A stretch of 64,000 nucleotides of DNA from Haloarcula halophila (GTDB taxonomy: Archaea; Halobacteriota; Halobacteria; Halobacteriales; Haloarculaceae): contig NZ_CP119561.1 of assembly GCF_029278565.1 (NCBI RefSeq), positions 186,001 to 250,000 on the forward strand. The letters are read 5' to 3'. The notes beneath the pieces are model-generated. The model did not search any database and was not told the DNA's origin. It was given only the letters and a program-made list of their open reading frames with translations. Position numbers and translations under genes: made by a program. The first letter of the stretch is position 1, and each line of letters begins with the position of its first letter. This document shows positions 42,612 through 56,357 of the stretch, piece by piece.

Positions 42612-43865
42612 GTGAATCTGGTCACGACACGCACCATTACAGCGACACTCACCAACGATCGTGGGGGTGTCGTGCAGGACCTCGATTCACTCGCTCGTTC
42701 CGGCAGTAAAATCTGGAACGTCGCTCGGTGGACTGCTGGCCATATCTGGGACGAAACCGGTGAAATACCCGAGGAAGGACCGCTCAAGTCCTACATGAAG
42801 AACCAACCGTGCTGGAAAGATTTGAACGCCCAATCAAGCCAGGCAATCGTCGAAGAATTGGCTGGCGCTTTCCAGTCCTGGTTCGAACAAGACAACCCAG
42901 ACGCTAACCCACCGGGCTACCGGAAACACGGTGACGACCGGCCACGCTCAACAATCACGTTCAAAGAAGACGGCTTCAAACTCGACTCCGAACACCAGCA
43001 AGTCCGGCTGTCGAAAGGGAAGAACCTGAAAGATGGGTGGAGTGACTTCATCCTCTGTGAATACGACACCGGCCCGGACGCAGACCTGACTGCCGTCGAG
43101 GACGTACAGCAGGTCCGTATTGTCTGGACCGGCGACCACTGGGAACTCCACTTCGTCTGTAAAATCGCCATCGACGCCACTGACTCAACTGGCGAGAAGA
43201 CGGCTGGTGTTGACCTCGGAATCTGTAATACTGCGGCTGTCTCAGTCGGGGATGAGACGTTGCTATATCCAGGGAACGCCCTGAAAGAAGACGCCCACTA
43301 CTTCCGCCAGGAAGAATACAATACAGAAGGCGAGAACGGCCCTAGCACCCATGCAGAGTGGGCACGCCAGAAGAAATCTCGGCGGCAGACCCACTACCTG
43401 CACGCACTCTCGAAAGATATCGTAGCGGAATGTGCAGACCGTGGCGTAGAGACGATAGCGGTCGGGCATCCCAAGAACATTCGTGTGGATGAAGACTGGG
43501 GCCGCCACGGGAACAAGCGTCTGCACGACTGGGCGTTTGACACCCTGCTGAGTCACATCGAGTACAAGGCTGAAGAACGCGGGATTGAGGTAGAGCGAGT
43601 CGATGAGTACGAGCTGGCCACGTCGATAACGTGCTGTGCCTGTGGGATGAAAGCCGATTCGAACCGTGTCGAACGTGGTCTGTACGTCTGTGAGAACTGC
43701 GAGTTGGTTGCTAACAGCGACTTGAACGCGGCGGAGAATATGCGAGCGACGGTAACTCCGAGTCCCTCTGTGGATAGGAGTAACGGCTGTCTGGCCCAGC
43801 CATCGGTGCGCCTGTTCGACAAATCGACGGGGCGAGTCGCCCCACAAGAACAGGTTTGCCCGTAG
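42612..43865 (+). CDS. tnpB: TnpB, RNA-guided nuclease of IS605 family
   Basis: This 417-residue protein (GTG start) has an N-terminal OrfB domain, the RuvC start AGVDLGICNTAAV (Asp), the zinc ribbon CCACGMKADSNRV...YVCENCELV, and the final ANSDLNAAENMR (Asp). The middle RuvC acid is normally in a VxxEDL or VGDL-like segment; here it reads IAVGHPKNIR, so the RuvC-II acidic residue seems lost. The C-terminus continues about 40 residues past the usual end. Confidence 0.88.
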   Translation: MNLVTTRTITATLTNDRGGVVQDLDSLARSGSKIWNVARWTAGHIWDETGEIPEEGPLKSYMKNQPCWKDLNAQSSQAIVEELAGAFQSWFEQDNPDANPPGYRKHGDDRPRSTITFKEDGFKLDSEHQQVRLSKGKNLKDGWSDFILCEYDTGPDADLTAVEDVQQVRIVWTGDHWELHFVCKIAIDATDSTGEKTAGVDLGICNTAAVSVGDETLLYPGNALKEDAHYFRQEEYNTEGENGPSTHAEWARQKKSRRQTHYLHALSKDIVAECADRGVETIAVGHPKNIRVDEDWGRHGNKRLHDWAFDTLLSHIEYKAEERGIEVERVDEYELATSITCCACGMKADSNRVERGLYVCENCELVANSDLNAAENMRATVTPSPSVDRSNGCLAQPSVRLFDKSTGRVAPQEQVCP

Positions 43866-43885
43866 ACCAGTAAATATCCCAACGC

Positions 43886-43932
43886 TTGCGGTGCGGTTCG
43901 GGAAGCCGCGCCCTTCAGGGCGCGGAGGAGGT
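43886..43932 (+). ncRNA. Right-end/omega-RNA hairpin of the tnpB element
   Basis: CTTGCGGTGCGGTTCGGGAA precedes the hairpin GCGCCCTTCAGGGCGC (43909-43924) and the terminal GGAGGAGGTCAC. By analogy with characterised TnpB systems the transcript 3' of tnpB forms the guide scaffold, with flanking DNA as guide. Confidence 0.55.
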
Positions 43933-51201: not shown

Positions 51202-51486
51202 TTATTGGACATTAACCTCGATACCGGTGAGCGCCTCAAGCGACTCCACAACTGATCGAGGACTTTGTGTCCCCGTCGTTTCGATGGTGACTTCGACGGT
51301 CACATCCGTCGCCGACAGGCCGGGCTGAAGCTGCTTGATTTCCCCAGCAGTGACACCAGAGACACCATCCGCACGAGAGAGTCGCCGCTCAGCGTCGGTT
51401 AGCAGGTCACCGTCCGTCCCGTTCGGAACGCGGACAGTTACCGTCATCGTGGTCTGATTCGTTTCAGTGTCATTGGTGAGTGTCAT
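51202..51486 (-). CDS. Small hypothetical protein downstream of Ro60 gene
   Basis: This 94-residue protein starts at MTLTNDTETNQ; a Met four codons upstream is possible. Beta strands and a helix (MTVTVRVPNGTDGDLLTDAERRLSRADGV, DVTVEVTIETTGTQSPRSVVESLEALTGIEVNVQ) suggest a compact alpha/beta ferredoxin-like fold. It is the last gene of the tRNA/Ro60 transcription unit. No function is known. Confidence 0.6.
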   Translation of the reverse strand: MTLTNDTETNQTTMTVTVRVPNGTDGDLLTDAERRLSRADGVSGVTAGEIKQLQPGLSATDVTVEVTIETTGTQSPRSVVESLEALTGIEVNVQ

Positions 51487-51543
51487 TGTCGCCTCCATTG
51501 GTGAATTGACCCGGCAGGAGCGTTCCATCAGGAAACTCCAAAT

Positions 51544-51617
51544 GCGCGAGAGGTGATTCGAACACCTGTCCCAGCCATGGCACGGCTGCGTGATCGACCA
51601 GACTACACTACTCGCGC
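51544..51617 (-). tRNA. tRNA-Gly(GCC)
   Basis: Acceptor CTCGCGC/GCGCGAG, anticodon loop GTGCCAT with stem CAGCC/GGCTG, T-arm AGGTG/CACCT with TTCGAAT. It lies between the Ro60 gene and the small gene at 51202, on the same strand. Confidence 0.9.
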
Positions 51618-51636
51618 AGAAACTGCAATAAGTGGG

Positions 51637-53166
51637 TTAGGATGGGTCGTACGCCGCAATTTCGCCGATGACTTGCCCTGGCTCCTCGGCGTAGCCGATG
51701 AACTCTAGGACTTGTTCCGACCAGCCCGAGATGTTGTAGACGTCCTCGTAGCCCTCCGGTGTCACGAGGTCGCCGTACGCGGCAAGATCGACCATGTACA
51801 GCGCCGTCTCCGACGCGACTTCCTCGCGGTATGCCTCGAACGCATCACGAACTGTCCGGTCGCCATCGACCATTTGGACCGTCGAGTCCCAGATCTGCAT
51901 GTCGGTGAACAGGACGACGCGGTCGACCTCGATGTGCTCCTCGCGGAGGTAGTCGAGGACCTTCCAGCCGTTCGTCGAGTTCCCGACCTCAGTATCGATG
52001 CCCATGGCTGCCCGCTGGCGCTGGAGCACCGGCGTATCGACGTGCGTTGACACCTGCTGGAAATCCGACCCGAACCCGCCGATACGAGCGCCCTGCTCGG
52101 CCATCACCGCACCGAACAACGCACCGATCTCCTTGCGCTGGAGAGTGCTCCGATCGGAGAGTGTCGCAGTCATCGACCCGGAGAGGTCGACGCCGACGAA
52201 CGTGTCGCCGAGCCCGTCAGGGACGTGCTCGACGGCCACGTCGACGGCCTGTTCCAGCCAGCGTTCGACTGCAGGCGAATCGAGCCCTGCGTCCTGGAGC
52301 GCTTTGTACGCCTGGTAGTACCGGAACGGGTACAGCGGCGCCCGACGCACTGCTTCCAGATCGAGGTGGCCGATGATGGTTGCCTCGTCGACGCCGGCGT
52401 CGAGCATGTTGCGGAGGTTCCGGATCGTGGCGAAGATCGGGAGAGAGTACTCGTCATCTTCGATGAGTTGCTCCCATGCCTCGGCCGTGTTCCCCTGCTC
52501 GGAGATGACCGTCTCCCACGTGTTCGGCGACGGCAGGGGATCGACCTCCGGGTAGTCGTCGAGGTCTCCGCGCATGAACCGCTCGAACAATTCCTCTTGC
52601 TCTTCGTCGGCGGGCGTCGGGTGGATGCGGTTGAACACGTCGTGCAGCGTCACCTCACGACGTGGAAGTGCGTACTTCTCTAGGGTGTACGCGTCTGCCA
52701 TCCCGACCAGCGCGTCCTCGATACCGCGCCGTAGCGGCCAGGGCGCGGTCCCGGCGAACAGGTTGTCGTGGACGGCCAGCGCCGTCGCGGTCTCGTCCAT
52801 TCGCTGGACGATGGCCGGCGTCCATGCTCGGATGAGCGACTCGTCCGAGTCGTCTTTGAAGCGGTCGTCGTTGGCCGCGAGCACCAGCAGGACCTGGGGG
52901 ATATCCCGCAGGTGCATCTCCTGGCGGGCGTACGCGGCGAGTTTGAGGATGAACTCCGGGTCCTCGGATGCTGTGGCGTCGAACCGCTCGATGACCGCTT
53001 GGAGATGCTCAGTGTCGTCCTCGTAGTACGAGTCCTCCAGCAGCTGGTTGATCGTTCGTTTGTACAGTGCGAGTCGTGGGTCCGCAAGCTGGAACGCCTC
53101 ACCGCCCTCGTGGTTGGTGGTGCGTGTCGCCTCCGTGACCGTCTGTTTCGTATCGTTCAGCTCCAT
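51637..53166 (-). CDS. TROVE-domain (Ro60-type) RNA-binding protein
   Basis: This 509-residue protein has the Ro60 layout. A HEAT-repeat ring makes up residues ~25-340 (FDATASEDPEFILKLAAYARQEMHLRDIPQVLLVLAA; RDIPQVLL is a family hallmark). The vWFA-like domain that follows has the metal site DLSGSM and VVLFTDMQIWDS. Ro proteins bind misfolded RNAs and Y RNAs and can direct RNases in RNA decay. The gene sits directly downstream of a large tRNA array and four tRNA-like cassettes on the same strand, with another tRNA behind it. This placement suggests it binds those RNAs. Confidence 0.93.
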   Translation of the reverse strand: MELNDTKQTVTEATRTTNHEGGEAFQLADPRLALYKRTINQLLEDSYYEDDTEHLQAVIERFDATASEDPEFILKLAAYARQEMHLRDIPQVLLVLAANDDRFKDDSDESLIRAWTPAIVQRMDETATALAVHDNLFAGTAPWPLRRGIEDALVGMADAYTLEKYALPRREVTLHDVFNRIHPTPADEEQEELFERFMRGDLDDYPEVDPLPSPNTWETVISEQGNTAEAWEQLIEDDEYSLPIFATIRNLRNMLDAGVDEATIIGHLDLEAVRRAPLYPFRYYQAYKALQDAGLDSPAVERWLEQAVDVAVEHVPDGLGDTFVGVDLSGSMTATLSDRSTLQRKEIGALFGAVMAEQGARIGGFGSDFQQVSTHVDTPVLQRQRAAMGIDTEVGNSTNGWKVLDYLREEHIEVDRVVLFTDMQIWDSTVQMVDGDRTVRDAFEAYREEVASETALYMVDLAAYGDLVTPEGYEDVYNISGWSEQVLEFIGYAEEPGQVIGEIAAYDPS

Positions 53167-53223
53167 GCTATCACTGGCGTCGCAACAGTCGACGCCAAGG
53201 CCCGCTCACCACGAGCGGAGAAC

Positions 53224-53297
53224 GTCCCTGACAGGATTCGAACCTGTGACACCCGGCTTCGAAGGCCGGTGCTCGTTCCGGACTGAGCTACAGGGAC
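53224..53297 (-). tRNA. tRNA-Arg(TCG)
   Basis: Acceptor GTCCCTG/CAGGGAC, anticodon loop CTTCGAA with stem CCGGC/GCCGG, T-arm ACAGG/CCTGT. A regular fold, immediately upstream of the Ro60 gene. Confidence 0.93.
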
Positions 53298-53316
53298 AGG
53301 CAGTGGTCGGAAAATC

Positions 53317-53420
53317 GTTGGAGCGAGAAATACCGTGGTACCAGTTCCACCAGAGCGGCCGATCCGCTCCCGGGGCTCGAACCCGGATCTGTCGCTTGAG
53401 GGGCGAAGGAACGCTCCAAC
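53317..53420 (-). ncRNA. Permuted tRNA-like RNA, cassette 1
   Basis: On the minus strand the ends pair (GTTGGAGCG / CGCTCCAAC). Inside, in this order, lie a small hairpin TCGC-CCCTCAA-GCGA, a T-arm CCGGG-TTCGAGC-CCCGG, a closed acceptor helix GAGCGG-ATCGG-CCGCTC, the dinucleotide TG, and a D-arm GTGG-AACTGGTA-CCAC. All tRNA parts are present but the 3' half precedes the 5' half. GTCGA precedes the cassette and GATTTTCC follows it. Confidence 0.6.
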
Positions 53421-53458
53421 TCGACGACCACCGACTGAATGGTGGCGACGGGAAAACT

Positions 53459-53570
53459 ATCGAAGCGGGTCCGGTGTCGGGACGATCCTTTTGCCCGGAC
53501 GTCACGATAGGCCGGAGCCTACCGTCAGGACTTGAACCTGATGTATACCAGTTCGAAGGAACGCTTCGAC
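53459..53570 (-). ncRNA. Permuted tRNA-like RNA, cassette 2
   Basis: Terminal stem GTCGAAGCG / CGCTTCGAT. Inside are a T-arm TCAGG-TTCAAGT-CCTGA, directly abutting a closed acceptor helix CGGTAGGC-TCCG-GCCTATCG (8 bp), then TG and a D-arm-like ACGTCC-GGGCAAAA-GGATCGT. The order is again 3' half then 5' half. GTCGA stands in front and AGTTTTCC behind. Confidence 0.6.
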
Positions 53571-53607
53571 TCGACAGTCGCCATGACTGAGTGGAGGCCG
53601 GAAAACC

Positions 53608-53663
53608 GACGGAGCGGTGCGGGAGTCGAACCCGCTGGATGCCTGAGGAAGGAATACTCCGTC
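53608..53663 (-). ncRNA. Short tRNA-like RNA, cassette 3
   Basis: Terminal stem GACGGAG / CTCCGTC around the conserved TTCCTTCC and a T-arm GCGGG-TTCGACT-CCCGC; no D-arm. It is preceded by CGTCGA and followed by GGTTTTCC like the other cassettes. It is either a reduced form or a remnant. Confidence 0.5.
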
Positions 53664-53701
53664 TCGACGGCCACCAACGAATGGTGGGACACCGGAAAGT
53701 C

Positions 53702-53749
53702 GGTGGTGGGTGAGCTGCTGTTCCTTACAAGAGGAAGTAACCCACTACC
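53702..53749 (-). ncRNA. Y-RNA-like hairpin, cassette 4
   Basis: Terminal stem GGTAGTGGGT / ACCCACCACC (one mismatch), internal hairpin TTCC-TCTTGTAA-GGAA, no T- or D-arm. CGTCGA stands in front and GACTTTCC behind. The stem sequence GUCGAGGUAGUGGGUUA recalls the Ro-binding end of animal Y RNAs (GGUAGUGAGUU). Confidence 0.45.
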
Positions 53750-53814
53750 TCGACGGTGTCCCGAAAGCTTGTGCCAGGACTGAGCAAAGTCGAAGACTTT
53801 GCAAGGGCCGGAAG

Positions 53815-53888
53815 ACGCAGTCTTCCGGAAGTCGAACCTGGACCGCGTCCATACCACGGACGTGCGCTGCCGATTACGCCACACAGGC
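53815..53888 (-). tRNA. tRNA-Thr(GGT), atypical 3' end
   Basis: D-arm GCGT/GCGC, anticodon stem CGTCC/GGACG with loop GTGGTAT (GGT), T-loop TTCGACT. The 3' acceptor strand matching GCCTGTG is missing; instead a hairpin GGAAGAC-TGC-GTCTTCC follows. Probably not aminoacylated unless edited or completed otherwise. Confidence 0.6.
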
Positions 53889-53892
53889 AAAG

Positions 53893-53963
53893 GCCGGGTG
53901 CGAGACTCGAACTCGCTGCTCGTCCGTCACAGGGCCGAAGGTTGCCAGTTACCCCAACCCGGC
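53893..53963 (-). tRNA. tRNA-His(GTG)
   Basis: Acceptor GCCGGGT/ACCCGGC with an extra 5' G (53964) opposite a 3' C, the histidine identity feature. Anticodon loop CTGTGAC, T-arm GCGAG/CTCGC. Confidence 0.85.
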
Positions 53964-53992
53964 CACAGCGCGCCCACTCGCTGTGGGCGCAT

Positions 53993-54064
53993 GGAACGAC
54001 TAGAACTGGAACCTGGACACGCCGGTTCTTCAGACCGGGACACTCCCAGTTGCGCTATCGTTCC
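53993..54064 (-). tRNA. tRNA-Phe(GAA)
   Basis: Acceptor GGAACGA/TCGTTCC, anticodon loop CTGAAGA with stem CCGGT/ACCGG. T-loop TTCCAGT and an imperfect T-stem are unusual. Confidence 0.82.
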
Positions 54065-54069
54065 GCGAT

Positions 54070-54144
54070 GCTCCCGAGGGGAATCGAACCCTTGGCCTCT
54101 ACCTCGAAAGGGTAGCATCCCTCGCCAGCGGGGACTCCGGGAGC
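54070..54144 (-). tRNA. tRNA-Glu(TTC)
   Basis: Acceptor GCTCCCG/CGGGAGC, D-stem GTCC/GGAT, anticodon loop CTTTCGA, T-arm AAGGG/CCCCT. Confidence 0.88.
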
Positions 54145-54146
54145 AA

Positions 54147-54288
54147 GCCACGAGTCGGATTCGAACCGTTGCCAGACGTGCTCGCTTCGCTGTGCGCGAC
54201 TGGCAGGGCTCGAAAACCGCGAACGGTTTTCTTACCGACGATCTCCCGCTCTGCAAGCGGGTGCGTTGGACCACTCTGCCACCGTGGC
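54147..54288 (-). tRNA. tRNA-Cys(GCA) with ~68-nt insertion in the T-arm
   Basis: Acceptor GCCACGG/TCGTGGC, anticodon stem GCTCT-free CCCGC/GCGGG with loop TTGCAGA (GCA). The T-stem GTCGG/CCGAC is regenerated only if the insert between GTCGG and TTCGAAT is removed. The insert holds two hairpins (AAAACCG/CGGTTTT and CTGCCAG/CTGGCA). Non-canonical intron or disruption. Confidence 0.75.
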
Positions 54289-54333
54289 ACGAAGACAGGG
54301 CGGTGAGGAGATGGGGAGAGTGCAGGTCCCCAC

Positions 54334-54406
54334 GCCAGGCCAAGGAATCGAACCTCACACAAGGTGGGTAACAGCCACCCTCCCGCACCATGCGGGACCG
54401 CCCGGC
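54334..54406 (-). tRNA. tRNA-Asn(GTT)
   Basis: Acceptor GCCGGGC/GCCTGGC, D-arm TCCC-GCATGGTGC-GGGA, anticodon stem GGTGG/CCACC with loop CTGTTAC, T-arm TGAGG/CCTTG with TTCGATT. Confidence 0.8.
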
Positions 54407-54410
54407 AGAC

Positions 54411-54482
54411 TGGCCCGACGGGATTTGAACCCGCTATCTGCCGATTAAAAGCCGGCTGCCTGTTCTCATAGGCTCCGGGCCC
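54411..54482 (-). tRNA. tRNA-Lys(TTT)
   Basis: Acceptor GGGCCCG/CGGGCCA (one end mismatch), D-stem GCCT/AGGC, anticodon loop CTTTTAA, T-arm GCGGG/CCCGT. Confidence 0.86.
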
Positions 54483-54487
54483 ACAGT

Positions 54488-54558
54488 GTATCGACCCAGA
54501 ATCGAACCGGGGTCACCAACTTGGAAGGCTGGTGTCTTGCCAATTGGACCACCGATAC
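54488..54558 (-). tRNA. tRNA-Gly(TCC)
   Basis: Acceptor GTATCGG/TCGATAC, anticodon loop CTTCCAA with stem CCAGC/GTTGG, T-arm CCCGG/CTGGG. Confidence 0.88.
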
Positions 54559-54562
54559 GCAT

Positions 54563-54634
54563 AGGCGCGAGCGGACTTGAACCGCTGCCGACCTCGTTAT
54601 CAGCGAGGGACTCTGACCACTGAGCTACGCGCCT
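54563..54634 (-). tRNA. tRNA-Ile(GAT)
   Basis: Acceptor AGGCGCG/CGCGCCT, D-arm with AGCTCAGTGG, anticodon loop CTGATAA with stem CCTCG/CGAGG, T-arm AGCGG/CCGCT. Confidence 0.9.
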
Positions 54635-54638
54635 GCAT

Positions 54639-54710
54639 TGGCAGAGCAGGATTCGAACCTGCGATCTTGCCGATGTGAGCGGCACATCCACTCCACTGGA
54701 CTGTCTGCCA
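54639..54710 (-). tRNA. tRNA-Val(CAC)
   Basis: Acceptor TGGCAGA/TCTGCCA, anticodon loop CTCACAT with stem TGCCG/CGGCA, T-arm GCAGG/CCTGC. Confidence 0.9.
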
Positions 54711-54712
54711 AT

Positions 54713-54784
54713 GCTCCAGCCCGGATTTGAACCGGGGGCTCGGCCGTGAGAGGGCCGCGAGTTTGCCCGCTACTCCACTGGAGC
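54713..54784 (-). tRNA. tRNA-Glu(CTC)
   Basis: Acceptor GCTCCAG/CTGGAGC, anticodon loop CTCTCAC with stem CGGCC/GGCCG, T-arm CCCGG/CCGGG. Confidence 0.9.
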
Positions 54785-54788
54785 AGAT

Positions 54789-54914
54789 GGGACGGGCAGG
54801 ATTCGAACCTGCGTGACCACGTTAGAAGTGTGACGAAGGAACTCTCAGCGTCGCACCGGATTTCCGGTGAAAACCCGTTGAGAGAGTTGGTGAACCAGGC
54901 TCTTCCACCGTCCC
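54789..54914 (-). tRNA. tRNA-Arg(TCT) with ~50-nt insertion between D-arm and anticodon arm
   Basis: Acceptor GGGACGG/CCGTCCC, anticodon loop CTTCTAA, T-arm GCAGG/CCTGC. Between D-arm and anticodon stem is a hairpin CTCTCTCA...TGAGAG enclosing GGTTTTC, a hairpin ACCGGA/TCCGGT and GCGACG, then TTCCTTCG. The same TTTTC, hairpin, CGACG and TTCCTTC blocks occur between the permuted cassettes. Confidence 0.7.
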
Positions 54915-54953
54915 ACAGCGGCGGTTGACTGCGTAAACAGCTAACTGCCAGAT

Positions 54954-55025
54954 CTTCCCGGCACGAGTCGAACGTGCGTCTCCGCCTCTACAGGGCGGCG
55001 TCATCGACCGCTGGACCACGGGAAG
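54954..55025 (-). tRNA. tRNA-Tyr(GTA)
   Basis: Acceptor CTTCCCG/CGGGAAG, anticodon loop CTGTAGA with stem CCGCC/GGCGG, T-arm GCACG/CGTGC. Confidence 0.9.
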
Positions 55026-55032
55026 TGGATGG

Positions 55033-55159
55033 ACTCCCTAGGGGACTCGAACCCGGAGTCGCCCGCTTGCGGCGCGCGGTTTGAGCGGAGCGAGAACCGC
55101 GGATAGCGAACGGCGAAGCCGTGAGCAAGCGGGTGCTCTGCCAATTGAGCTAGGGGGCC
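55033..55159 (-). tRNA. tRNA-like gene with ~55-nt anticodon-loop insertion (Ala or Gly?)
   Basis: D-arm GCTC-AATTGGCA-GAGC and anticodon stem CCCGC/GCGGG are intact, but the loop reads TTGC...insert...GCAA with two inserted hairpins (ACGGC/GCCGT, CGCGGTT/AACCGCG). Splicing could leave GGC (Ala) or GCC (Gly). The acceptor and T-stem are degenerate, so it may be dead. Confidence 0.5.
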
Positions 55160-55188
55160 CCAGGAGGATTTGTCGTCGAAACTGCGAT

Positions 55189-55262
55189 TGCGGGACCACG
55201 ATTCGAACGTGGGTCTGCTGGTTATGAGCCAGCCGGGATCGACCAGGCTACCCAATCCCGCA
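55189..55262 (-). tRNA. tRNA-Met(CAT), initiator-like D-arm
   Basis: Acceptor TGCGGGA/TCCCGCA, D-region GGGTAGCCTGG as in initiators, anticodon loop CTCATAA with stem GCTGG/CCAGC, T-arm CCACG/CGTGG. No intron, unlike elongator tRNA-Met of many haloarchaea. Confidence 0.85.
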
Positions 55263-55266
55263 GCAT

Positions 55267-55348
55267 GTCGCCGCGAGGATTCGAACCTCGGCAGGACCTA
55301 CGCCAGCGGTTCTGAGCCGCCTCCCGTTGACCACTTGGGTACGGCGAC
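55267..55348 (-). tRNA. tRNA-Leu(CAG)
   Basis: Type II tRNA with long variable arm. Acceptor GTCGCCG/CGGCGAC, anticodon loop CTCAGAA, T-arm CGAGG/CCTCG. Confidence 0.9.
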
Positions 55349-55381
55349 GCACAATATCGGAGCCAGCACCGTGACTGGCAT

Positions 55382-55462
55382 GTCGCCAGCAGGATTCGAA
55401 CCTGCGATAGTCTGCACACACGGCCCTCAACCGTGCCCCGTTGACCACTTGGGTATGGCGAC
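55382..55462 (-). tRNA. tRNA-Leu(GAG)
   Basis: Type II. Acceptor GTCGCCA/TGGCGAC, anticodon loop TTGAGGG, T-arm GCAGG/CCTGC. Confidence 0.9.
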
Positions 55463-55467
55463 GCAGT

Positions 55468-55548
55468 TCCGCGGGAGGGATTCGAACCCTCGAAGAGCTG
55501 TTCAGCGGGTCTTAAGCCCGCCGCTGTTGGCCGCTTGGCTACCGCGGA
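55468..55548 (-). tRNA. tRNA-Leu(TAA)
   Basis: Type II. Acceptor TCCGCGG/CCGCGGA, anticodon loop CTTAAGA with stem GCGGG/CCCGC, T-arm GAGGG/CCCTC. Confidence 0.9.
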
Positions 55549-55551
55549 GAT

Positions 55552-55621
55552 GGGCAAGGATCGATTTGAACGACCATCGTCCGCTCTGGAGGCGGCCGTT
55601 TTCCCGTTAAACTACCTGCCC
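55552..55621 (-). tRNA. tRNA-Trp(CCA), intronless
   Basis: Acceptor GGGCAGG/CTTGCCC, anticodon loop CTCCAGA, T-arm GGTCG/CGATC. The ~100-nt intron usual for haloarchaeal tRNA-Trp is absent. Confidence 0.87.
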
Positions 55622-55625
55622 ACAC

Positions 55626-55710
55626 GGCGGGAGGGCGATTTGAACACCCGTGCCCTCGCAGGCACCGTGGTTCCAGCACGGCCCCTTGGCCGAACTAGGG
55701 GAACCCCGCC
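55626..55710 (-). tRNA. tRNA-Ser(GGA)
   Basis: Type II. Acceptor GGCGGGG/TCCCGCC, anticodon loop CTGGAAC with stem CCGTG/CACGG, T-arm GGGTG/CGCCC. Confidence 0.9.
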
Positions 55711-55714
55711 ACAC

Positions 55715-55795
55715 GGTGAGACGGAGAGTCGAACTCCGAAGCCTCTCGGCTCTCGATCTCAAATCGAGTGCAGTCACCTGTCTGCCTGTCTCACC
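55715..55795 (-). tRNA. tRNA-Ser(TGA)
   Basis: Type II. Acceptor GGTGAGA/TCTCACC, anticodon loop TTTGAGA with stem CTCGA/TCGAG, T-arm CGGAG/CTCCG. Confidence 0.9.
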
Positions 55796-55836
55796 TCGAA
55801 AGAGGGGTGTTCCTCAACCCTGCTTTCCAGCAGGAC

Positions 55837-55921
55837 GCCACGACCCGGATTTGAACCGGGGAATCCCTCTCGGGATACCTCCGTAGCAGGGAGGCGTCCG
55901 ACCAGGCTAGACCATCGCGGC
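55837..55921 (-). tRNA. tRNA-Ser(GCT)
   Basis: Type II. Acceptor GCCGCGA/TCGTGGC, anticodon loop CTGCTAC with stem CCTCC/GGAGG, T-arm CCCGG/CCGGG. Confidence 0.9.
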
Positions 55922-55925
55922 AGAT

Positions 55926-55997
55926 GGGTCGACGAGGAGTTGAACCTCGGTCTCGTGCACCCAAGGCACGGATCTTCGACCGCTAGACCATCGACCC
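55926..55997 (-). tRNA. tRNA-Pro(TGG)
   Basis: Acceptor GGGTCGA/TCGACCC, anticodon loop CTTGGGT with stem CGTGC/GCACG, T-arm CGAGG/CCTCG. Confidence 0.9.
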
Positions 55998-56027
55998 GAA
56001 AGCAATTGTGTGTCTATTCGTCTGTGG

Positions 56028-56066
56028 GTGCGAGGCCAGGAGTGACTGCGCTCCTGACCTCGCGGG
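56028..56066 (-). ncRNA. Long hairpin in a gap of the tRNA array
   Basis: GCGAGG-C-CAGGAG and CTCCTG-A-CCTCGC form a stem of about 13 bp with one mismatch around a short loop. It sits in a 200-nt gap between tRNA-Pro and tRNA-Asp that has no tRNA. A further hairpin GTCGAC-ATCGT-GTCGAC lies near 56144-56160. Confidence 0.4.
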
Positions 56067-56197
56067 GGCGTACTCTGACTGCCTGCGCAGTCTCGAATGC
56101 CACACCGGCTCATGCAGGTTGCAGACCCTTCCGGGTCCATCGCCGTCGACATCGTGTCGACCGCGTGTGCCTGCCTCGATGGGCATCCGATCGGAAC

Positions 56198-56269
56198 GCC
56201 GACGTCGGGATTTGAACCCGAATCGCAGCCGTGACAGGGCCGTATGCTTCCGAGTTACACCACGTCGGC
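56198..56269 (-). tRNA. tRNA-Asp(GTC)
   Basis: Acceptor GCCGACG/CGTCGGC, anticodon loop CTGTCAC with stem CGGCC/GGCTG, T-arm TCGGG/CCCGA. Confidence 0.9.
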
Positions 56270-56282
56270 ACGCGACGGCCAT

Positions 56283-56357
56283 CGCCCCGGGGAGAATCGA
56301 ACTCCCGACCTCGGGATTCAAAGTCCCGCGTCCCTCGCCAGCGGGGACTCCGGGGCT
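56283..56357 (-). tRNA. tRNA-Gln(TTG), intronless
   Basis: Acceptor GCCCCG/CGGGGC, D-arm identical in style to the Glu(TTC) gene, anticodon loop CTTTGAA with stem CGGGA/TCCCG, T-arm GGGAG/CTCCC. First tRNA of the array in transcription order. Confidence 0.88.

What the first reader, a model, noticed from the sequence alone, without database searches (positions are those of the whole stretch)
53302..53756. Row of permuted tRNA-like RNAs next to a Ro60 gene: candidate archaeal Y RNAs
Four minus-strand cassettes share one plan: GUCGA, a stem of 7-10 bp, (C)UUCCUUC or UUCCUC, a body, the complementary stem, then a U-tract. The stem sequences all differ yet each pairs with its partner, which is covariation. 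In cassettes 1 and 2 the body is a tRNA in swapped order: T-arm, an acceptor helix closed by a short loop (GAGCGG/CCGCTC; CGGTAGGC/GCCTATCG), TG, then D-arm. The RNA ends lie where the anticodon arm would be. Known bacterial Y RNAs carry a tRNA-like module plus a stem formed by the ends that binds Ro60, and here the Ro60 gene is one tRNA away. I know of no described archaeal equivalent; alternatively these are permuted tRNA genes awaiting circularisation.
Basis: partly seen in the sequence, partly recalled or inferred. Interest (0 to 1): 0.95.

Follow-up and report, generated by a model that had tools for sequence, protein, structure and literature searches.

The report
Archaeal Y RNAs beside Ro60 gene
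A salt-loving archaeon carries, just upstream of its gene for the RNA-binding ring protein Ro60, a row of small tRNA-like RNA genes that look like the archaeal form of the 'Y RNAs' known from animals and bacteria; one of them occurs in an ordinary, unscrambled tRNA layout that appears not to have been described.

Summary
Four minus-strand RNA cassettes (53303-53760) lie one tRNA upstream of a TROVE/Ro60 gene. Two bodies are permuted tRNA-like modules; one is a T arm only, one a plain hairpin. The 'U-tract' is the 3' side of the internal loop, not a terminator.
Such cassettes sit upstream of TROVE in all 43 TROVE-positive genomes among 391 of the class; none was found in the 348 TROVE-negative genomes. 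They also occur in virus HGTV-1. UUNCUUC recurs in bacterial and phage Y RNAs beside their Ro60 genes, with the same arm order (T arm, acceptor hairpin, D arm). They are best read as archaeal Y RNAs; permuted tRNA genes are rejected.
A further find: 'tRNA-Arg(UCU) with intron' (54788-54914) is an unpermuted version, a normally ordered tRNA with the same Ro stem inserted between D arm and anticodon-like arm. It recurs in 27 TROVE-positive genomes, HGTV-1 and a distant archaeal family. Transcription and Ro60 binding are untested.

The parts
53303..53431 (-). Y RNA cassette C1 (type A): outer stem, UCGA/GAUUUUC loop, 9-bp stem, UUCCUUC, then T arm - acceptor hairpin GAGCGG/CCGCUC - D arm
   Evidence: 8 orthologues aligned, acceptor and Ro stems covary
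53445..53581 (-). Y RNA cassette C2 (type B): T arm - acceptor hairpin - long bulged arm in the D-arm place
   Evidence: R1 match 48.5 bits
53594..53674 (-). Y RNA cassette C3 (type C): Ro stem with a T arm only
   Evidence: R1 match 54.2 bits
53688..53760 (-). Y RNA cassette C4 (type D): Ro stem with a small hairpin body
   Evidence: R1 match 47.7 bits
54788..54914 (-). Unpermuted Y-tRNA (looks like tRNA-Arg(UCU) with an intron): acceptor - D arm - inserted closed Ro stem - UUCCUUC - anticodon-like arm - T arm - acceptor
54835..54884 (-). Ro-stem core of the Y-tRNA: CTCTCAACG / GGTTTTC / ACCGG-AAAT-CCGGT / GCGA / CGCTGAGAG / TTCCTTC
   Evidence: R3 match 75 bits
51637..53166 (-). TROVE/Ro60 protein gene, 509 aa, TROVE + Ro60-type vWA with DxSxS motif
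   Evidence: Pfam PF05731 E 6.9e-21 and PF25045; best 13 PDB fold matches all Ro60
53222..53298 (-). tRNA-Arg(TCG) between C1 and TROVE; its 5' end lies 4 nt from the C1 3' end (possible RNase P processing point)
   Evidence: found at the same place in most of the 12 loci scanned
51542..51618 (-). tRNA-Gly(GCC) directly downstream of TROVE; found there in nearly all of the 12 related loci scanned
53766..56357 (-). tRNA gene array upstream of the cassettes (contains the Y-tRNA)

Best explanation
The four cassettes and the split 'tRNA-Arg(UCU)' are archaeal Y RNAs, the non-coding partners of the TROVE/Ro60 protein encoded next to them. Shown by sequence: a conserved two-helix stem with an asymmetric internal loop (UCGA facing NNUUUUC), followed by UUNCUUC, carrying variable bodies of which at least one is tRNA-like in most well-covered loci, always upstream of TROVE on the same strand. 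Inferred: the stem binds the outer surface of the Ro60 ring through the loop, as in animal and bacterial Ro-Y complexes. The tRNA-like body then gates the ring or tethers a tRNA-recognising enzyme or an exonuclease, so that damaged or misfolded RNA (probably tRNA, given the tRNA array and, in HGTV-1, a nearby RtcB ligase) is sorted for repair or decay. The RNAs are probably cut out of one transcript with the tRNAs; RNase P cutting of tRNA-Arg would make the C1 3' end. Two topologies exist: permuted (RNA ends in the Ro stem, as in bacterial YrlA) and unpermuted (RNA ends in the acceptor stem, Ro stem as a closed insert between D arm and anticodon-like arm). They are circular permutations of one fold. 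My estimates: identity as Y RNAs about 0.93; the specific gate/tether function about 0.5.
For: Covariation of both stems and of the unpermuted element (0.39 against 0.137 +/- 0.021 shuffled). Co-occurrence with TROVE: R1 model in 37 of 391 class genomes, all TROVE-positive; R3 in 27, all TROVE-positive. The two TROVE-positive genomes left (G138, G282) were checked by fetched DNA, giving 43/43 against 0/348 (Fisher p about 2e-58; 6e-46 for R1 alone). In 715 kb of loci every R1 match below E 1e-3 lies upstream of TROVE on its strand. The TROVE protein has a Ro60 fold and an intact DLSGSM vWA motif; K163, R169 and H181 are invariant in 14 proteins and align in an HMM alignment with the KYkQR...H segment of human RO60. 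Same arm order as the Rfam YrlA consensus. UUaCuuC after the inner stem and CCga before it in the Deinococcus Y RNA consensus. UUNCUUC in Y RNA genes beside Deinococcus, Xanthomonas-phage and Caulobacter-phage Ro60 genes. HGTV-1 has both topologies beside its TROVE gene.
Against: No transcript or binding data. Rfam's YrlA and Deinococcus_Y_RNA models do not recognise the cassettes (no YrlA match at E <= 5; Deinococcus_Y_RNA 14.6 bits, E 8.3, gathering score 80). Some bodies (C3, C4) carry no full tRNA-like module. The TROVE model has only moderate confidence (mean pLDDT 66.5, low in the segment around H181). The R1 and R3 models were trained on TROVE loci, so absence elsewhere tests only this motif family. 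Linked inheritance of the whole tRNA-array unit can account for part of the co-occurrence.
Confidence: 0.88

Rival explanations
1. Permuted tRNA genes: the cassettes are tRNA genes in swapped order, spliced at a bulge-helix-bulge motif, circularised and then opened by RNase P and tRNase Z into working tRNAs.
For: C1 and C2 order T arm - acceptor hairpin - D arm, with RNA ends where the anticodon arm would be.
Against: No canonical BHB placement in any cassette (crude search, no positive control). No anticodon arm or anticodon. C3, C4 and the 35-nt-body type lack acceptor and D arms. The terminal stem keeps a fixed non-BHB loop in 56 distinct cores. Not found in TROVE-negative genomes.
Confidence: 0.03
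2. The 'tRNA-Arg(UCU)' at 54788-54914 is an ordinary tRNA with an intron, unrelated to Ro60.
For: The acceptor, T arm and a 7-nt anticodon-like loop (CUUCUAA) are intact in the window. Deposited annotation calls the HGTV-1 homologue 'tRNA-Asp + Intron'.
Against: The insert carries the Ro-stem signature: covarying 9-bp stem, NNUUUUC/GCGA loop, UUNCUUC. It sits before the anticodon arm and has no BHB. The 'anticodon' drifts (UCU, UGU, UUU, UAU), U33 is lost in some, and in L008 the loop is replaced by UUCG. It was found only in TROVE-positive genomes (27 of 27).
Confidence: 0.07
3. The cassettes are transcription or RNA-processing signals of the tRNA array (cis elements), not free RNAs bound by Ro60.
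For: They sit in a row between tRNA genes with only 12-13 nt between cassettes in the window and no obvious room for separate promoters.
Against: Bodies with covarying tRNA arms are not needed for a cis signal. Co-occurrence tracks TROVE, and bacterial Y RNAs have the same architecture and position. HGTV-1 and distant archaeal loci have the element beside TROVE without the array around it.
Confidence: 0.04

Closest known systems
Bacterial and phage YrlA-type Y RNAs (Rfam RF02553), e.g. of Salmonella and phages
   Same: Gene just upstream of Ro60, often several in a row; stem formed by the ends, internal loop, inner stem, then T arm - acceptor hairpin - D arm; UUNCUUC after the inner stem in 4 bacterial/phage genes read.
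   Different: Archaeal stem loop is UCGA/NNUUUUC; not recognised by the Rfam model; types with T arm only, hairpin only, or extended D arm; an additional unpermuted Y-tRNA.
Deinococcus radiodurans Y RNA (Rfam RF01053), which tethers Rsr to PNPase (PMC4726728)
   Same: Consensus has CCga before the inner stem and UUaCuuC after it, plus a T arm.
   Different: Weak model score (14.6 bits); the archaeal degradation partner is unknown.
Vertebrate Y RNAs
   Same: [quoted passage not shown] from memory, the sequence GGUCCGA resembles archaeal GGUCGUCGA.
   Different: No tRNA-like module; upper stem serves in DNA replication; no clear homology beyond the Ro stem.
Haloarchaeal tRNA gene clusters with TROVE (PMC6333295)
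   Same: Same genomic unit: a TROVE gene was reported in 20 of 29 archaeal tRNA clusters.
   Different: That paper's main text contains no mention of Y RNA; it records tRNA pseudogenes and introns, some of which may be these RNAs.
Permuted tRNA genes
   Same: Swapped order of tRNA parts.
   Different: No BHB found, no anticodon, not decoding tRNAs.

Membership tests
Y RNA (as a functional kind: Ro60-bound ncRNA) | Gene lies next to a Ro60/TROVE gene | tested here: met
   43/43 TROVE-positive class genomes; not found in 348 negatives
Y RNA (as a functional kind: Ro60-bound ncRNA) | 5' and 3' ends form a helix interrupted by a conserved bulge or internal loop | tested here: met
   7-bp outer and 9-bp inner helices, UCGA/NNUUUUC loop; CGA invariant in 56 cores
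Y RNA (as a functional kind: Ro60-bound ncRNA) | At least one Y RNA per locus has a tRNA-like module (bacterial type) | tested here: met
   types A/B in most well-covered loci, incl. window, L004, L005, L007, L008, L036, L038, L040; a few loci show only short-body cassettes in my scan
Y RNA (as a functional kind: Ro60-bound ncRNA) | Physically bound by Ro60 | not testable with these tools
   needs pull-down or binding assay
Y RNA (as a functional kind: Ro60-bound ncRNA) | Stable transcript | not testable with these tools
   no RNA-seq data available
Rfam YrlA RF02553 | Covariance-model score at or above gathering (69 bits) | tested here: not met
   no YrlA match at the cassettes at E <= 5 or E <= 10
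Rfam YrlA RF02553 | Order: terminal stem - inner stem - T arm - acceptor hairpin - D arm | tested here: met
   C1-type consensus structure against YrlA consensus
Rfam Deinococcus_Y_RNA RF01053 | Covariance-model score at or above gathering (80 bits) | tested here: not met
   14.6 bits, E 8.3
Permuted tRNA gene | BHB splice motif joining the permuted ends | tested here: not met
   no canonical BHB in C1-C4 or the Y-tRNA (crude, no positive control)
Permuted tRNA gene | Complete tRNA incl. anticodon after joining | tested here: not met
   C3, C4 lack acceptor and D arm; C1, C2 have no anticodon arm
Ro60/TROVE protein | TROVE domain plus vWA domain with MIDAS motif, Ro60 fold | tested here: met
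Ro60/TROVE protein | Y-RNA-contacting residues (human K170, R174, H187; which residues these are is from memory) | tested here: inconclusive
   archaeal K163/R169/H181 invariant and align there in a low-scoring HMM segment

The most novel reading that the evidence does not exclude
Archaea and an archaeal virus use two circular permutations of one Ro60-binding, tRNA-shaped RNA. One is permuted and YrlA-like. The other is an unpermuted 'Y-tRNA': a normally ordered tRNA body with the Ro60-binding stem grown between D arm and anticodon arm, now annotated as a tRNA with an intron. The unpermuted form would be the expected ancestor or sister of all tRNA-mimicking Y RNAs and would show how they arose from a tRNA.
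Probability: 0.75. Interest if true: 0.88.

Novelty: new variant of a known kind. Interest (0 to 1): 0.83.

Why it matters
It would carry the Ro60-Y RNA system, known as an RNA quality-control machine in animals and bacteria, into a third domain with a defined RNA partner set, on plasmids, chromosomes and a virus that can be grown. The unpermuted Y-tRNA offers a concrete answer to how Y RNAs came to mimic tRNAs. The arrangement in which tRNA arrays, tRNA-like RNAs, Ro60 and (in HGTV-1) RtcB travel together makes a testable case for tRNA protection or repair by mobile elements. It also means some 'tRNAs with introns' in archaeal and viral genomes may be mis-annotated.

Tried and rejected
Rfam: the cassettes match no family at gathering score. 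Permuted-tRNA/BHB model: rejected. Intron reading of tRNA-Arg(UCU): rejected on anticodon drift, position and covariation. U-tract as terminator: rejected, it is the 3' strand of the internal loop. R1/R3 in bacterial and phage TROVE loci and in the distant archaeal loci: no matches below E 0.1, so the archaeal models do not transfer; there the signature was found by reading the sequence. Viral-contig scans with the TROVE proteins gave only two distant loci and HGTV-1 itself. PADLOC found nothing on TROVE or the small ORF. Literature searches found no description of archaeal Y RNAs, but most subscription papers, including the main bacterial Y RNA papers and a 2020 review, are not in the library, so an earlier mention cannot be excluded.

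Full report
Setting. The window is part of a 363-kb contig (G000 contig 3) of a haloarchaeal genome; it also carries a family-B DNA polymerase, Cdc6/Orc proteins and a PCNA-like clamp. The TROVE gene (51637-53166, minus) lies in a unit that reads, on the minus strand: tRNA array - four cassettes - tRNA-Arg(TCG) - TROVE - tRNA-Gly(GCC). The protein matches Pfam TROVE (6.9e-21) and the Ro60 vWA model. Its AlphaFold model, of moderate confidence (mean pLDDT 66.5), has Ro60 structures as its 13 best PDB matches, including the Ro60-RNA complex 1yvp, Deinococcus Rsr 2nvo and a Thermus phage Ro60. That TROVE genes sit in haloarchaeal tRNA clusters was already published (20 of 29 clusters, PMC6333295); Y RNAs are not mentioned there.

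Observation. All four cassettes are present. The common plan is: 7-bp stem b - UCGA - 9-bp stem a' - UUNCUUC - body - stem a - NNUUUUC - stem b'. The 'U-tract' is the 3' strand of the internal loop. Among 56 distinct cores, CGA and the T.CTTC of the linker are invariant, while most stem positions vary in a compensating way. On 42 distinct cores 13 of 16 pairs have changes on both sides; the covariation score is 0.58 against 0.24 shuffled and at most 0.19 slid. Because the scan required near-complete pairing, I rely on the variety of pair types and not on the percentage paired. RNAalifold, which does not know the intended structure, returns both stems plus T arm, acceptor hairpin and D arm for C1 orthologues, and both stems plus T arm and the extended arm for C2 orthologues.

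Distribution. 40 haloarchaeal TROVE loci were fetched. Pattern scans and the covariance model R1 find cassettes in 39 of them, always upstream of TROVE on the same strand; the exception, L009, is one of two TROVE copies on a contig whose other copy (L038) has cassettes. In 715 kb no R1 match below E 1e-3 lies elsewhere. Over 391 genomes of the class, 43 have TROVE; R1 rings in 37, all TROVE-positive. The model of the unpermuted form, R3, rings in 27, again all TROVE-positive. Of the six TROVE-positive genomes missed by R1, all have cassettes or the unpermuted form in the fetched DNA. So 43/43 against 0/348 (Fisher p about 2e-58). Caveat: the models come from TROVE loci, and the unit is inherited together.

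The unpermuted form. The gene that looks like tRNA-Arg(UCU) with an intron (54788-54914) contains the same element in the other circular order: stem a, NNUUUUC, closed hairpin b'-b, GCGA, stem a', UUCCUUC, all placed between D arm and anticodon arm. It was found with a matching acceptor stem in 32 fetched loci (some overlap), with different stem sequences that still pair, and in none of 500 kb of shuffled sequence. Covariation on 16 cores: 0.39 against 0.137 +/- 0.021 shuffled, 11 of 14 pairs with changes on both sides. The anticodon drifts (UCU, UGU, UUU, UAU), U33 is not kept, and in L008 the loop is a UUCG tetraloop, so it is not a decoding tRNA. Halovirus HGTV-1 has it too, deposited as 'tRNA-Asp + Intron', about 2.8 kb upstream of its TROVE gene and 1.2 kb downstream of an RtcB gene, together with two permuted cassettes, one ending just before TROVE. 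In a distant archaeal family of the same phylum (L060, L061) an unpermuted Y-tRNA lies directly upstream of TROVE, with UUACUUC kept and covarying stems. In L051 a permuted RNA matching Rfam YrlA at 33 bits lies there.

Link to known Y RNAs. Rfam's YrlA consensus has the same order: terminal stem, internal loop, inner stem, T arm, acceptor hairpin, D arm. The Deinococcus Y RNA consensus reads ...CCga-A-stem-UUaCuuC.... Y RNA genes directly upstream of Ro60 genes in Deinococcus taeanensis, Xanthomonas phage Olaya (two) and Caulobacter phage CcrPW carry UUCCUUC, UUACUUC, UUACUUC and UUUCUUC after the inner stem; in two of them (D. taeanensis and the second Olaya RNA) an anticodon-like hairpin follows, and in all four a T arm. 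The junction D arm - Ro stem - UUNCUUC - anticodon-like arm is therefore the same in these permuted bacterial-type RNAs and in the unpermuted archaeal Y-tRNA; they differ in where the circle is opened. The archaeal cassettes are not recognised by the Rfam models themselves.

Mechanism. Vertebrate Ro60 binds a seven-base-pair helix with a bulged cytidine and an opposite three-nucleotide bulge on the outer surface of its ring; D. radiodurans Y RNA gates Rsr and tethers it to PNPase (PMC4726728). In Salmonella the Ro60-Y RNA-RtcBA operon is switched on by broken tRNAs, and YrlA has been proposed as a competitive inhibitor of an anticodon nuclease (PMC7790460). By analogy I propose that the archaeal stem docks on the TROVE ring and that the tRNA-like body gates or tethers, in a system that handles damaged tRNA. 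Stem, loop, conservation and gene linkage are shown; binding, transcription, processing and function are inferred. In the archaeal protein K163, R169 and H181 are invariant and align, weakly, with the KYkQR...H segment of human RO60.

Verdict. The find is a new, widely conserved archaeal branch of Y RNAs with a topology that, as far as the searchable literature shows, is undescribed.

Noticed in passing
window 51202-51528 (-): A small ORF (108 aa) just downstream of TROVE and tRNA-Gly is conserved at the same place in 32 related loci (41-61% identity in the examples read), with no NCBIfam, PADLOC or Pfam match: a candidate partner of the Ro60/Y RNA unit.
   Followed up: partly
window 53766-53890, 54146-54288, about 55045-55160 (-): tRNA-Thr(GGT), tRNA-Cys(GCA) and a tRNA-Ala-like gene carry hairpin inserts (T loop, T arm, anticodon loop) that the Thr and Cys genes of L004 lack. 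They have no UUNCUUC/CGA signature and look like recent insertions that may disable the tRNAs.
   Followed up: partly
L043 5013-5144 (HGTV-1, KC292026): The deposited 'tRNA-Asp (gtc) + Intron' has the unpermuted Y-tRNA plan and is probably mis-annotated.
   Followed up: yes
L060 2214-2339 (-), L061 614-736 (+): A distant archaeal family of the same phylum has TROVE genes with an unpermuted Y-tRNA immediately upstream; its loop has UGCA where haloarchaea have CGA, resembling the UGC of the YrlA consensus.
   Followed up: partly
between cassettes, window 53582-53593, 53675-53687 and the same places in other loci: The short linkers between cassettes share a CACCATTCR / CATCACTCAT-like sequence; possible processing signal or cleavage site.
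   Followed up: no
anticodon-like arm of Y-tRNAs (window about 54817-54833, L010, L060) and L051 about 1230: The loop CUUGUAA/CUUCUAA recurs in the unpermuted Y-tRNAs of haloarchaea and of the distant archaeal family, and in the permuted L051 RNA, although it is not decoding; possible decoy for an anticodon nuclease or a modification-enzyme target.
   Followed up: no
window 43750-43926 (+): Rfam match to sot0042 (sense overlapping transcript RNA), 98.8 bits.
   Followed up: no
L044 about 1477 (+), L045 about 3992 (-): A further long cassette type (ATACTTC linker, about 110-nt body) lies deeper in the tRNA array, about 1.1-1.6 kb from the other cassettes.
   Followed up: no
L068 (Allomeiothermus silvanus plasmid pMESIL01): A bacterial plasmid TROVE gene is followed directly by an RNB-domain (RNase R-like) exoribonuclease gene, hinting at a different nuclease partner from PNPase.
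   Followed up: no
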